This document shows, in pieces, positions 24,801-30,800 of a stretch of DNA of 64,000 bases. The DNA comes from Owenia fusiformis (taxonomy: Eukaryota > Annelida > Polychaeta > Sabellida > Oweniidae): NCBI GenBank assembly GCA_903813345.2, contig CAIIXF020000012.1, forward strand, positions 2,211,318 through 2,275,317. Reading direction: 5' to 3'. The notes beneath the pieces are model-generated. The model was not told where the DNA came from. It saw nothing but the letters and a program-made list of their open reading frames with translations, and ran no database searches. The position numbers and the translations under genes are program-made. Numbering within the stretch: the first letter of the stretch is position 1; every line of letters begins with the position of its first letter.

Positions 24801-27800
24801 GAAAATATTTCACTAATGTTAGCTGAAATTTTTAACCATTAGAGCTGAAAATACAGAAATATAAAACCAAGACTGCCAGATTCATATTTTGAACATTTTA
24901 ATTTAGATGGTTGATCCATAAACAGGCCCGTAGCCAGGATTTGCCAAGTTTTCAAAAATGTCCAGGGGTGTTCACATTTGACAATTTTGGCCCAAATATG
25001 GCTAAAATCACTTGAGAAGTGCTCAAAATGGTGAAAAACTGCATGATTTTGAACGAAATTTTGGCCCGAAACCTGTGAACCCCCCTGGCTACAGGCCTGC
25101 ATAAAATGTTATAAATATAAGAAGATTTTAGTTGTTTGATGATTCTGAGTATTTAGTTATAAGAACATCATTGTTCAATATATACCATAACTTGACCATA
25201 ATGTAACAGTTGAACACTAAATTTAGCCTTGTAATAGAACTATACAATTACACTAAAATTCAATAAGAAATAAATGACAAATAAAGAATGAGAGAGACTT
25301 GATGAGAATTGATGAATATGCCTTCAAACATGGTAATATGTCAAACATATGATTAGAAGATACCTATTGGTAAAATTTGATACATTTCCAGTTAGAATTT
25401 ACACTGATCAAACAGATAGATTATGACAGCCAAATCATAGAATTATTACATGACAAAATGTCAATTAAGTCTCTGATATTTAATATTTTACAACCTACTC
25501 AATTCGTCCACTCACGAGGTTATATGGTCATCCAAAATGATTTCATCCAAACTGTTTTGCTTAAACATGAAATTAATACAAATACTAGCAATTACAAGAT
25601 ACCTAATTGGCGTTTATCAAAAATAAAAAAAATTTCCTTCTTAAGTCACACTATGTCTATCAGGTAGGAGTATGGAAGATGTGAAGATTTGTTTAATTGG
25701 TGAAGTTATCTATGATTCAAAGTGCAAAAATGTGGGAAAAATCTCCAAAATAATAAATGCGGTGACCATATCTACATATACAGAAAAAATGATACATTGT
25801 TGTAAAAATCTATATTGTTTCACTTTATGTAGTATCACTTTAGGGATTTTTATTTAAAAAAATAGGCATGGCAAGGAATGATAGGAGCCTAAAATATTCT
25901 AAAATTGAAACAATCTATGTTTAGTTTGCTAGCTAGATCTAACGCTACCTTTAATGCATGGTAATTTGTGGCAAAATAACGTTTCATTGAAAATAACTCA
26001 GGGTGACATCTTTCTGAAGATATAAGTGACAGGAATGTTCCTGGGGAGATACACATATTTTCCTCGGTATAAACAATGTATTCAAAACCTCAGAGTACAT
26101 AATCCTTGCATACACACTTGTAGATAGAATTGAAAAATTGGTGAAAGCCCAGGCCCGTAGCCAGGATTTGCCAAGGGGGGTTCACTTTTTGAAAAATTCC
26201 AGGTGTGGTTCACTTTTGACAATTTTGATCCAAAAATGACCAAAATCACTTAAAAAGTGCTCAGAATGGTGAAAAACTGCATGATTTTGAAAGATGTTTT
26301 GGCCCATCGAACCCCCCTTGGCTATGGGCCTGAAGCCTATTCTTTCAACATAAAGCAAAACCAACAAATATGAATATATATAATAGTTTTTCTTCAAGAC
26401 CTTGTACATCCTCCCACATTTTCTCTCTCCCAATAGGGAAAGGGGACACAGGGTCTCAATGTAAGACTACCATAAAGCATAATGTAATGGATCTGCATAC
26501 CTTTAGGACATTGCACAGCTCCCTCTTTATTTGACTCTATCATCGCATCTGCAAGTGTTTCCCTTATATGGTCCTCCGCATTCTCTGTACTTTGCGTTCC
26601 ACCTGGAATCTCTGGCCAGCTTCCATAGACATCTACGAGACTAGGAGACTGCTCATAGCTTCCTGTAAAACAACACAACTACAGATGAACACCCACTTTA
26701 GAGGGAATATTATCTCTTAAATCTGAATACCAGCACTTTCTCGCAGTCCCATAGAGCAGGTATATTATATTAGCCGGGGCATAATCCCAATATCTTGAAC
26801 CCCATATAGGTTAATCTCTATGTCTGTAAGATTAAATGAAAGAACATACATGTCTGTAATGAAATCGGAATAAATTGATGAAAAGCGTTTTCATTTTAGC
26901 CATTCTTGAGTTATGCATGAAAAATACAAAATATTTTTGAAAGAATCAAAAGAATCAAAGTAGTAACCCCAATTGTCATTTGTCCAACCTTAAGTTAATA
27001 GGTAGTCAATGTCGACATTAAAGTTTACACTGTATACATTACTTGTATATGAATAAAATAATCTTTATTTTATATAAGTTGTAACTGACCTGCTTCTATG
27101 GTGAGAACTGACTTGTTGTCATACTGGTTAGGAGTAAAATGATCGCTGCCACTGCCTGAGGAGTGACGTCTACTTCCACGTGCCCCAGGCATTGCTACAG
27201 GACTAGATCTTGCTTGGTGTAACCTAAGAGCATAAAAGGGCAAAATGATCAATCCCTCTATCCGTTTTAACACTATTAAGGCATTGCTACATTATATCAT
27301 TCTTATTATATCCTTATAAAATACAAAAATCAACAGTTGTATATGCCCACACTTCTTTACAAAAGGCCTTTATTAAAGATAACACATACTGTGCTCTATA
27401 TATAAACATTTTATGAACACCCATGTTACATGATATGGTCTGAAATGACGACTGATTCTTAAATCAAATGATTAATCTTAAAAAAATCATAGACTCACTT
27501 TAAACTTTGTAGATCGACATCTTCTGTGACGATATCCATGGTTGAGAATGCTGTTTCAGGACTTTGCGATAACAATGCTGATGAATTGGAGGAGAGAACT
27601 GTTGTATTTGTCACATTCTGGAATGTCTTAAAGCTGAACTGAGGTCCCATCCAAAGTCTACGATGCGGTCCTATATGAGTTACTATCTCAACCTAGAAAT
27701 ACAAGATTTAAAACAATGTCTTAAAGCTGAACTGAGGACCCATCCAGAGTTTACGATGCGGCCCTATATGAGTTACTATCTCAACCTAGAAATACAAGAT

Positions 27801-30800
27801 TTAAAACAATATCTTAAAGCTGAACTGAGGCCCCATCCAGAGTCTACGATGCGGTCCTATATGAGTTACTATCTCAACCTAGAAATACCAGATTTAAAAC
27901 AATGTCTTAAAGCTGAACTGAGGTCCCATCCAAAGTCTACGATGCGGCCCTATATGAGTTACTATCTCAACCTAGAAATACCAGATTTAAAACAATGTCT
28001 TAAAGCTGAACTGAGGACCCATCCAGAGTCTACGATGCGGTCCTATATGAGTTACTATCTCAACCTAGAAATACCAGATTTAAAACAATGTCTTAAAGCT
28101 GAACTGAGGTCCCATCCAAAGTCTACGATGCGGCCCTATATGAGTTACTATCTCAACCTAGAAATACCAGATTTGAGACAATGTCTTAAAGCTGAACTGA
28201 GATCCCATCCAGAGTCTACGATGCGGCCCTATATGAGTTACTATCTCAACCTAGAAATACAAGATTTAAAACAATGTCTTAAAGCTGAATTGAGGCCCCA
28301 TCCAGAGTCTACGATGAGGCCCTATATGAGTTACTATCTCAACCTAGAAATACAAGATTTAAAACAATGTCTTAAAGCTGAACTGAAGACCCATCCAGAG
28401 TCTACGATGAGGCCCTATATGAGTTACTATCTCAACCTAGAAATACAAGATTTAAAACAATGTCTTAAAGCTGAACTGAGGTCCCATCCAGAGTCTACGA
28501 TGCGGCCCTATATGAGTTACTATCTCAACCTAGAAATACAAGATTTAAAACAATGTCTTAAAGCTGAACTGAGGACCCATCCAGAGTCTACGATGCGGTC
28601 CTATATGAGTTACTATCTCAACCTAGAAATACCAGATTTAAAACAATGTCTTAAAGCTGAACTGAGGTCCCATCCAAAGTCTACGATGCGGCCCTATATG
28701 AGTTACTATCTCAACCTAGAAATACCAGATTTGAGACAATGTCTTAAAGCTGAACTGAGGTCCCATCCAGAGTCTACGATGCGGCCCTATATGAGTTACT
28801 ATCTCAACCTAGAAATACAAGATTTAAAACAATGTCTTAAAGCTGAATTGAGGCCCCATCCAGAGTCTACGATGAGGCCCTATATGAGTTACTATCTCAA
28901 CCTAGAAATACAAGATTTAAAACAATGTCTTAAAGCTGAACTGAAGACCCATCCAGAGTCTACGATGAGGCCCTATATGAGTTACTATCTCAACCTAGAA
29001 ATACCAGATTTAAAACAATGTCTTAAAGCTGAACTGAGGACCCATCCAGAGTCTACGATGCGGCCCTATATGAGTTACTATCTCAACCTAGAAATACCAG
29101 ATTTAAAACAATGTCTTAAAGCTGAACTGAGGACCCATCCAGAGTCTACGATGCGGCCCTATATGAGTTACCATCTCAACCTACAAATACATGATTCAAA
29201 ACAAAGATTTAGAATAAAAATTTCTTGATAATTAAAAGCTTAGTTATCTTCTAAATAATCAACTCATGGAGGGTACTGTATGTAATTAAATACCATACAT
29301 GTGATAACAATTGGTCTTCCCATTCTCCCTTACTACTGTAAAACTTCCACTTGCTAAACTTATGGAGGGGAGTGTATGCAAGGAAATACCATACCTGTGA
29401 TAACCATTGGTCTTCCCATTCTCCCTTACTACTGTAAAACTTCCACTTGCTAAACTTATGGAGGGGAGTGTATGCAAGGAAATACCATACCTGTGATAAC
29501 CATTGGTCTTCCCATTCTCCCTTACTATTGTAAAACATCCACTTGCTAAACTTATGGAGGGGAGTGTATGTGAGGAAATACCATACCTGTGATAACCATT
29601 GGTCTTCCCATTCTCCCTTACTACTGTAAAACTTCCACTTGCTAAACTTATGGAGGGGAGTGTATGTGAGGAAATACCATACCTGTGATAACCATTGGTC
29701 TTCCCATTCTCTCTTACTATTGTAAAACTTCCACTTGCTAAACTTATGGAGGGGAGTGTATGCAAGGAAATACCATACCTGTGATAACCACTGGTCTTCC
29801 CATTCTCCCTTACTACTGTAAAACTTCCACTTGCTAAACTTATGGAGGGGAGTGTATGCAAGGAAATACCATACCTGTGATAACCATTGGTCTTCCCATT
29901 CTCCCTTACTACTGTAAAACTTCCACTTGCTAAACTTATGGAGGGGAGTGTATGTGAGGAAATACCATACCTGTGATAACCATTGGTCTTCCCATTCTCC
30001 CTTACTATTGTAAAACTTCCACTTGCTAAACTTATGGAGGGGAGTGTATGTGAGGAAATACCATACCTGTGATAACCATTGGTCTTCCCATTCTCCCTTA
30101 CTATTGTAAAACTTCCACTTGCTAAACTTATGGAGGGGAGTGTATGCAAGGAAATACCATACCTGTGATAACCATTGGTCTTCCCATTCTCCCTTACTAT
30201 TGTAAAACTTCCACTTGCTAAATTTATGGAGGGGAGTGTATGCAAGGAAATACCATACCTGTGATAACCATTGGTCTTCCCATTCTCCCTTACTATTGTA
30301 AAACTTCCACTTGCTAAACTTATGGAGGGGAGTGTATGCAAGGAAATACCATACCTGTGATAACCATTGGTCTTCCCATTCTCCCTTACTATTGTAAAAC
30401 TTCCACTTGCTAAACTTATGGAGGGGAGTGTATGCAAGGAAATACCATACCTGTGATAACCATTGGTCTTCCCATTCTCCCTTACTGCTGTGATCTGAAG
30501 ATAAACTGCTCTGGGAATCTGTTCTAGGGACACCATCGCAATCATCTGCAAAATATTTAGTAATAAGATGATGTTCAATTGTTGACTATTTTTGAAAAAT
30601 TAGATATTTACATACTTACCAAAAATATTATCTAGACCCTTGATCCAGTGTTTTTATACTTCTTCATAGTCTATGAATTTTACATTTTCATAAAACAATA
30701 GTTCACACTCTTTGAACATGAACACCGAGCTTGGTTCATCAAACCCATACACATTCCTCTACAAAAGTTTATACAAACCAAAATGTAAACATTGTACTTT

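What the first reader, a model, noticed from the sequence alone, without database searches (positions are those of the whole stretch)
27625..30489. An intron made of two arrays that multiply its own splice sites
BCAS3 intron 16 (2,758 nt) consists almost wholly of 13 copies of its donor junction (96-bp unit with 37 nt of exon 16) abutting 17 copies of its acceptor junction (93-bp unit with the start of exon 17). Both arrays begin exactly at the genuine exon edges and meet in the middle with about 50 bp between. I know of no described intron in which both ends have independently expanded into splice-site arrays. Two independent expansions within one intron suggest a mechanism that targets exon-intron junctions, or selection on splice-site number.
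Basis: partly seen in the sequence, partly recalled or inferred. Interest (0 to 1): 0.93.

Follow-up and report, generated by a model that had tools for sequence, protein, structure and literature searches.

The report
Splice-junction minisatellites facing across one intron
An intron of what looks like an annelid worm gene consists almost wholly of repeated copies of its own start and end splice junctions; such repeats are known from lancelets, but here they also occur in several highly conserved genes and, in this intron, at both ends, giving a natural test of how cells choose among near-identical splice sites.

Summary
BCAS3 (minus strand) intron 27693-30450 (2,758 nt) is 13 tandem 96-bp copies of its donor junction and 17 tandem 93-bp copies of its acceptor junction around a short spacer. 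The arrays overlap 37 nt of exon 16 and 71 nt of exon 17. The kind is known: 'mirage' minisatellites of exon-intron boundaries in amphioxus. This host looks like an annelid. In the same genome, junction arrays also occur in GSK3, ERK, MEK, PAK and PKN; 3 of 49 sampled exons carry junction duplications. Selection for site number or frame fails as a general rule: 4 of 10 ERK acceptors are intact, 3 of 8 unit lengths are multiples of 3. Junction targeting is neither shown nor excluded (3 seen, 0.83 expected). The donor unit contains the terminus of a dispersed inverted-repeat element that forms arrays elsewhere. Best reading: minisatellite birth and unequal exchange across junctions, tolerated because the outermost sites can serve. 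My searches found no annelid case and no intron with arrays at both ends.

The parts
30451..30545 (-). BCAS3 exon 16 (95 nt); its last 37 nt are the exonic part of donor copy 1
   Evidence: acceptor TTTTGCAG, donor CACAG|GTATGG
29240..30487 (-). donor-junction array, 13 units of 96 bp (37 nt exon 16 + 59 nt intron); open reading frame from exon 16 into copy 13
29342..30432 (-). span holding 12 copies (one in each of donor copies 1-12) of the 35-nt terminus of a dispersed inverted-repeat element (TACACTCCCCTCCATAAG...), starting at intron position +19 of each unit, 1-2 mismatches to the family terminus
29240..29335 (-). innermost donor copy (13): against the consensus 2 of 37 exonic and 17 of 59 intronic positions differ; GT kept but CACAG became CACAT
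29203..29239 (-). unique spacer between the arrays
27622..29202 (-). acceptor-junction array, 17 units of 93 bp (22 nt intron + 71 nt exon 17); read through in frame, 16 of 16 inner intronic parts hold a TAG and 14 of 16 also a TAA
27499..27692 (-). BCAS3 exon 17 (3' limit from the AAA|GTGAGT donor, by eye); its first 71 nt are the exonic part of acceptor copy 0
27693..30450 (-). intron 16 as removed if the outermost donor and outermost acceptor are used (2,758 nt)
32114..32148 (-). old degenerate copy of the acceptor junction of exon 13 (matches 31977-32009, 86%)

Best explanation
This is a pair of 'mirage' minisatellites. A segment spanning the exon 16 donor junction and, separately, one spanning the exon 17 acceptor junction were tandemly duplicated at the DNA level and then expanded and homogenised by unequal exchange or slippage. 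They are tolerated because the copy attached to the rest of each exon is intact: exon definition (inferred) joins the first donor to the last acceptor and everything between is one intron. On the donor side the founding event probably involved the terminus of a small dispersed inverted-repeat element at intron position +19. Two facing arrays are expected now and then in a genome where junction arrays are common. Shown: anatomy, homogenisation with degenerate inner edges, recurrence in other genes, the element terminus. Inferred: the mechanism of expansion, the seeding by the element, and the splice choice.
For: Units keep exon and intron contiguous, so copying was of DNA, not of spliced RNA. 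Inner-edge copies are the most diverged (donor copy 13: 19 to 21 of 96 differences to other copies; acceptor copy 16: 5 to 9 of 93), and in both the divergence lies mainly on the side facing the spacer (2 of 37 exonic against 17 of 59 intronic, P=0.007; 2 of 71 against 3 of 22, P=0.08), as unequal exchange predicts. Acceptor copies 4, 5 and 7 recur unchanged as 10, 11 and 13, a six-unit higher-order repeat. The same anatomy recurs in five other genes, whose exons, read from the outermost copy, align without gaps to solved relatives: GSK3, ERK, PAK, MEK, PKN. Junction duplications affect 3 of 49 sampled exons. The element terminus forms tandem arrays elsewhere: 13.9 x 40 bp and 6.1 x 44 bp.
Against: No RNA data: use of the outermost sites rests on protein homology. 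The junction excess is borderline (3 observed, 0.83 expected, P about 0.05 by a rough estimate), so a junction-directed process is not excluded. The element terminus was found in 1 of 4 arrays tested by genome search (BCAS3 donor yes; BCAS3 acceptor, GSK3, ERK no; a miss there does not prove absence), so it is not shown to be the general cause. Donor copy 13 is far more decayed than copies 1-12, which match the element terminus with 1-2 mismatches; equal ageing does not explain that.
Confidence: 0.75

Rival explanations
1. A junction-directed process (for example transcription- or splicing-linked strand breaks at exon-intron boundaries) creates tandem duplications across splice sites.
For: Junctions of sampled exons are covered by arrays more often than expected (3 seen, 0.83 expected, P about 0.05; 4 if the broken Ras copy is counted, P about 0.01). 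Recurs in amphioxus and in several genes here.
Against: Two of the three sampled events sit on one exon (PAK), so they may not be independent; the BCAS3 arrays were preselected; the expectation is rough. No shared motif at the exon-side breakpoints was seen, by eye only.
Confidence: 0.13
2. The arrays are kept by selection, because extra splice sites or the extra in-frame repeats are useful (alternative isoforms with 32-residue inserts).
For: In BCAS3 both units are multiples of 3, 13 of 13 GT and 17 of 17 AG are kept, and the donor array is one open frame into copy 13. Variants shared among acceptor copies fall mostly on third codon positions (4 of 5 after dropping four repeated copies).
Against: Only 3 of 8 units in this genome are multiples of 3 (96, 93, 54 against 94, 98, 86, 71, 80), about the chance rate. 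ERK's array amplified a unit with a dead acceptor (4 of 10 AG intact) and MEK keeps 2 of 4 donors. BCAS3 inner acceptors lead to in-frame stops. All variable exon columns taken together give 6 of 10 at third positions, P=0.07.
Confidence: 0.06
3. Assembly artefact: a misassembled or over-expanded repeat.
For: Copy numbers in the lancelet PGBD5 repeats differed between two genome versions (2 or 7 and 3 or 6 repeats), and one globin mirage was aberrantly assembled in the draft.
Against: Copies differ by distinct substitutions and form a higher-order repeat; no N in the window; the same kind of array appears in unrelated genes.
Confidence: 0.05

Closest known systems
Mirage minisatellites of amphioxus (globins BflGb6 and BflGb9, passages of PMC3087553; Adh3 and troponin C as cited in PMC3087553 and PMC3902484)
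   Same: Tandem repeats whose unit spans an exon-intron boundary, at 5' or 3' boundaries; AG/GT signals in many copies; homogenised inside with edge units excluded; regular splicing reported.
   Different: Host here looks like an annelid, not a cephalochordate; copy numbers (13 and 17) exceed the 3 to 7 I read of (Adh3 numbers not seen); both ends of one intron are expanded; one unit contains the terminus of a dispersed element.
Lancelet PGBD5 repeats (PMC3902484, section 16 and a passage of section 17)
   Same: Two different junction-overlapping arrays (60 bp and 108 bp) in one gene.
   Different: They overlap exons 3 and 4; the text I read does not describe them as facing each other across one intron.
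Intron gain by duplication of AG/GT proto-splice sites (Rogers model, as cited in PMC3087553)
   Same: Duplicated DNA carries AG/GT signals.
   Different: Here an existing intron is lengthened; no new intron position was shown.

Membership tests
Mirage minisatellite | tandem repeat unit spans an exon-intron boundary | tested here: met
   37+59 nt and 22+71 nt units
Mirage minisatellite | concerted evolution inside the cluster, boundary units excluded | tested here: met
   inner-edge copies most diverged; higher-order repeat
Mirage minisatellite | regular mRNA splicing not disturbed | not testable with these tools
   no RNA data; with outermost sites the joined exons match Pfam BCAS3 in one stretch
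Mirage minisatellite | length polymorphism, somatic instability | not testable with these tools
   one assembly only
Mirage minisatellite | cephalochordate host (true of the cases I read; a known range rather than a structural criterion) | tested here: not met
   haemoglobin-linker genes matching Pfam's 'Annelid erythrocruorin linker' model; GC 34.0% over 248,521 bases (that amphioxus is near 41% is recalled)
Introner or other dispersed intron-generating element | same unit found in many introns of the genome | tested here: not met
   acceptor unit: 8 of 8 matches local. Donor unit: 9 of 40 matches local; 30 of the other 31 cover only the stretch around the element terminus, one bridges two termini. 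The tool scores only its best candidates
Dispersed inverted-repeat element (MITE-like; the name is recalled) | conserved terminus with an inverted partner a short distance away | tested here: met
   for the dispersed family: inverted partners in 6 of 17 fetched places (L060, L065, L067, L069, L071, L073) and in survey locus L050. In BCAS3 only the one orientation was found (12 hits with up to 8 of 35 mismatches)

The most novel reading that the evidence does not exclude
In this annelid, and independently in amphioxus, a junction-directed duplication process (in part nucleated by inverted-repeat element termini) keeps creating arrays of splice sites, so that some introns become competitions among a dozen or more near-identical donors and acceptors, resolved by position alone.
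Probability: 0.13. Interest if true: 0.85.

Novelty: new variant of a known kind. Interest (0 to 1): 0.55.

Why it matters
Arrays of near-identical donors and acceptors that differ only in position are a natural test of how the spliceosome picks a site: exon definition predicts the outermost pair, scanning from a branch point predicts the innermost acceptor (which in BCAS3 would bring in-frame stops). Finding such arrays in ERK, MEK, GSK3, PAK, PKN and BCAS3 of one genome shows that even very constrained genes tolerate them. It also suggests that 'mirages' are not a lancelet peculiarity, and offers a route by which introns lengthen and by which new exons or introns could arise.

Tried and rejected
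Amphioxus as host: suggested by the mirage literature; judged unlikely on the haemoglobin-linker genes, GC and contig lengths: C1 to C12 are 31.9 to 62.2 Mb and sum to about 477 of 498 Mb (lengths). In one search four of six linker matches pass the family cut-off, and the bacterial and archaeal controls gave one sub-cut-off match. Pfam searches of G000 for COX1, GFP and the BCAS3 C-terminal domain found nothing, but the last is present in the window, so those misses mean little. A PDB search with joined BCAS3 exons found nothing.

Frame or splice-number selection: rejected as a general rule (see rivals). RNA-mediated origin: rejected, since units keep exon and intron contiguous. Element-terminus origin as a general rule: not supported, found in 1 of 4 arrays tested. 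Microhomology at breakpoints: looked at by eye only, not resolvable because the inner copies are degenerate. The kinase hit pair that led me to GSK3 proved to be two tandem similar exons, not a mirage; the mirage lay downstream by luck, so GSK3 is not counted in the sample. Papers seen only in passages: earthworm metallothionein (PMC12783039), tandem repeats in an intron, not described as spanning a junction; G-alpha evolution (PMC5896119) and an ascidian paper (PMC7710358), not relevant. Searches for related cases: 15 of 2,945 listed; 3 of 3; 6 of 6; 5 of 5; 10 of 10; 15 of 50; apart from the papers named, judged from listings only. For Adh3 I tried a recalled DOI; that paper is not held, so it is known to me only through the citations and recall.

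Sampling: exons were taken from the kinase (150 matches, 124 of 876 candidates scored) and Ras (153 matches, not all listed, 150 of 302 candidates scored) lists in listing order with open frame up to 160 aa; 19 and 30 were used. Dropped: hits within about 125 kb of one already taken, and one kinase hit with five stops (C12:15056113). Arrays at non-sampled exons of the same regions (PKN, ERK) are not in the 3 of 49. The '3 seen' is my count: PAK acceptor and donor and the MEK donor array (one search printed only an overlapping 246-bp array there).
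Full report
WHAT IS THERE. On the minus strand of the window lies BCAS3: eight exons between 35730 and about 27500, translated and joined, hit Pfam BCAS3_WD40 (1.4e-36) and the BCAS3 C-terminal domain (3.7e-7); with the WD40 model, 8 of 9 matches in the genome lie in this window and the ninth has E=2.07. Between exon 16 (30545-30451) and exon 17 (from 27692) the 2,758-nt intron consists of two tandem arrays. The donor array has 13 units of 96 bp, each 37 nt of exon 16 plus 59 nt of intron, with GT in 13 of 13 and CAG|GT in 12 of 13. 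The acceptor array has 17 units of 93 bp, each 22 nt of intron plus 71 nt of exon 17, with AG in 17 of 17. The arrays overlap the exons rather than starting at their edges. Mean identity is 97.6% (donor copies 1-12) and 96.0% (acceptor copies 0-15).

CODING CONSEQUENCES. Reading on from exon 16, the donor array is open in frame for 12 whole units and into the 13th: use of an inner donor would add multiples of 32 residues. The acceptor array is closed: 16 of 16 inner intronic parts carry an in-frame TAG and 14 of 16 also a TAA, so use of any inner acceptor would give a premature stop. The two arrays thus have opposite consequences if mis-spliced. Whether this ever happens cannot be seen from DNA.

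HOW THE ARRAYS EVOLVE. The copies facing the spacer are the most diverged, and within them the half facing the spacer most (donor copy 13: 2 of 37 exonic, 17 of 59 intronic, P=0.007; acceptor copy 16: 2 of 71 and 3 of 22, P=0.08). Acceptor copies 4, 5 and 7 recur unchanged as 10, 11 and 13. Both are signs of unequal exchange with array edges left out. Variants shared among acceptor copies lie mostly at third codon positions (4 of 5 after dropping four repeated copies), but all variable columns give only 6 of 10 (P=0.07); I draw nothing firm from this.

NOT ALONE IN THE GENOME. G000 (498 Mb) was sampled. GSK3: acceptor array 94 bp x 6.8 at L006 75-709; the exon read from its outermost copy is identical over 65 residues to a solved GSK3 beta. 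ERK: acceptor array 80 bp x 9.6, L022 2599-3369. PAK: acceptor array 86 bp x 3.8 and a two-copy donor duplication of 71 bp on the same exon, L013. MEK: donor array 54 bp x 3.9, L023. PKN: acceptor array 98 bp x 3.0, L012. One Ras exon has old acceptor-junction copies separated from it by about 780 bp of other sequence, L046. In BCAS3 itself exon 13 has a degenerate acceptor copy; of 18 BCAS3 exons compared with their surroundings (exon limits partly approximate), 3 had local direct copies: 13, 16 and 17. For a rate, 19 kinase and 30 Ras exons were taken by a fixed rule (given under Tried and rejected); 3 of 49 exons, or 4 of 98 junctions, carry junction duplications. If arrays fell at random, about 0.83 of 98 junctions would be covered; by my count tandem arrays cover 3 (P about 0.05), or 4 with the broken Ras copies (P about 0.01). 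The estimate is rough and two of the three are on one exon; it neither proves nor excludes targeting. At 4% per junction, introns with both ends affected would be expected by independence at a low but non-zero rate (inference).

SELECTION. Across eight arrays or duplications (BCAS3 x2, GSK3, ERK, PAK x2, MEK, PKN) unit length is a multiple of 3 in 3 of 8, about the chance rate. Splice dinucleotides are intact in 13 of 13 and 17 of 17 copies in BCAS3, 7 of 7 in GSK3, 3 of 3 in PKN, 4 of 4 and 2 of 2 in PAK, but only 4 of 10 in ERK, where six copies share the same dead acceptor, and 2 of 4 in MEK. Amplification of a dead site speaks against selection for site number.

A TRANSPOSABLE-ELEMENT TERMINUS. 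The donor unit searched in G000 gave 40 matches, 9 local and 31 elsewhere; 30 of the 31 cover only a stretch within intron positions +8 to about +59, and one bridges two such stretches at 74%. The 31 lie at 17 places, all fetched. They share a terminus TACACTCCCCTCCATAAGTTT(A/G)GCAACTGGAAGTT, with variants, that begins abruptly after differing flanks. In 6 of the 17 (L060, L065, L067, L069, L071, L073), and in survey locus L050, an inverted partner lies near, the pairs spanning 94 to about 260 bp: a small inverted-repeat element. BCAS3 donor copies 1-12 match the terminus with 1-2 mismatches, starting at intron position +19. The terminus alone is tandemly repeated at L058 (40 bp x 13.9) and L059 (44 bp x 6.1); L060 holds a related 26-bp x 3.1 array. 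So on the donor side an element terminus prone to tandem amplification probably seeded the array, which ran over into the exon (inference). The BCAS3 acceptor, GSK3 and ERK units showed no relatives elsewhere, so this is not shown to be general. Donor copy 13 is much more decayed than copies 1-12 although it should be as old; unexplained.

HOST. Six matches to the annelid erythrocruorin linker domain, four of them over its cut-off, lie within 22 kb on one contig; two exons joined from one of the genes hit that Pfam model at 2.1e-18 and solved haemoglobin linkers. That the family is confined to annelids rests on its Pfam name and recall. With 12 chromosome-sized contigs and 498 Mb, Owenia fusiformis (12 scaffolds, 505.8 Mb in PMC9977687, passages) is a likely species, unproven.

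WHAT IS KNOWN. 'Mirages' were described in amphioxus. In PMC3087553 (passages of the abstract and section 16) repeats of 150-160 bp span the 3' end of an intron and the start of exon 2 of globin BflGb6, a 3' exon boundary is duplicated in BflGb9, both boundaries can be affected, regular splicing is reported from RT-PCR, and inner units are homogenised; Adh3 is cited as an earlier case. PMC3902484 (section 16, passages) adds PGBD5 and cites troponin C. Searches for related cases (mostly judged from listings) gave no annelid case and no intron with arrays at both ends; this covers only the held library and these terms.

VERDICT. Observation confirmed; novelty claim reduced. It is a mirage pair, remarkable for facing arrays in one intron, for the host lineage, for the frequency in conserved genes and for the element terminus in one unit. 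The neutral reading is the most likely; targeting remains open and countable.

Noticed in passing
L005 3371-3711: GSK3 has two similar tandem exons about 180 bp apart (both coding YIH..GVCHRDIKPQNLL): possibly mutually exclusive alternative exons of the catalytic loop.
   Followed up: partly
L058 242-797; L059 119-385; L060 1-81: Tandem arrays built from, or related to, the terminus of the dispersed inverted-repeat element (40, 44 and 26 bp periods): an element end that seeds minisatellites.
   Followed up: partly
window 29240-29335 against 29336-30487: Innermost donor copy is far more diverged from the element terminus than copies 1-12, which match it with 1-2 mismatches; equal ageing does not explain it.
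   Followed up: no
L007 2571-3535 and L023 6666-7985: The same 162-bp tandem repeat, by eye, at two unlinked places: a dispersed satellite-like element.
   Followed up: no
window 32675-32932 and 47131-47388: A 134-bp two-copy repeat occurs twice in the window, by eye in opposite orientation.
   Followed up: no
window 5369-6882: 30-bp x 50.5 array with long open frames on the minus strand; no exon identified.
   Followed up: no
L046 1536-2554: Ras-family exon with acceptor-junction copies separated from it by about 780 bp of other sequence: an old mirage apparently broken by an insertion.
   Followed up: partly
L022 7450-8975: 91-bp x 16.7 array in the ERK region that was not resolved as intronic or junction-spanning.
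   Followed up: no
G000 C6 27028280-27049838: Cluster of six matches (four over cut-off) to the annelid erythrocruorin linker domain.
   Followed up: partly
window 39496-39568, minus strand: tRNA-like match to Rfam RF00005 (33.5 bits, gathering 29), between BCAS3 exons.
   Followed up: no
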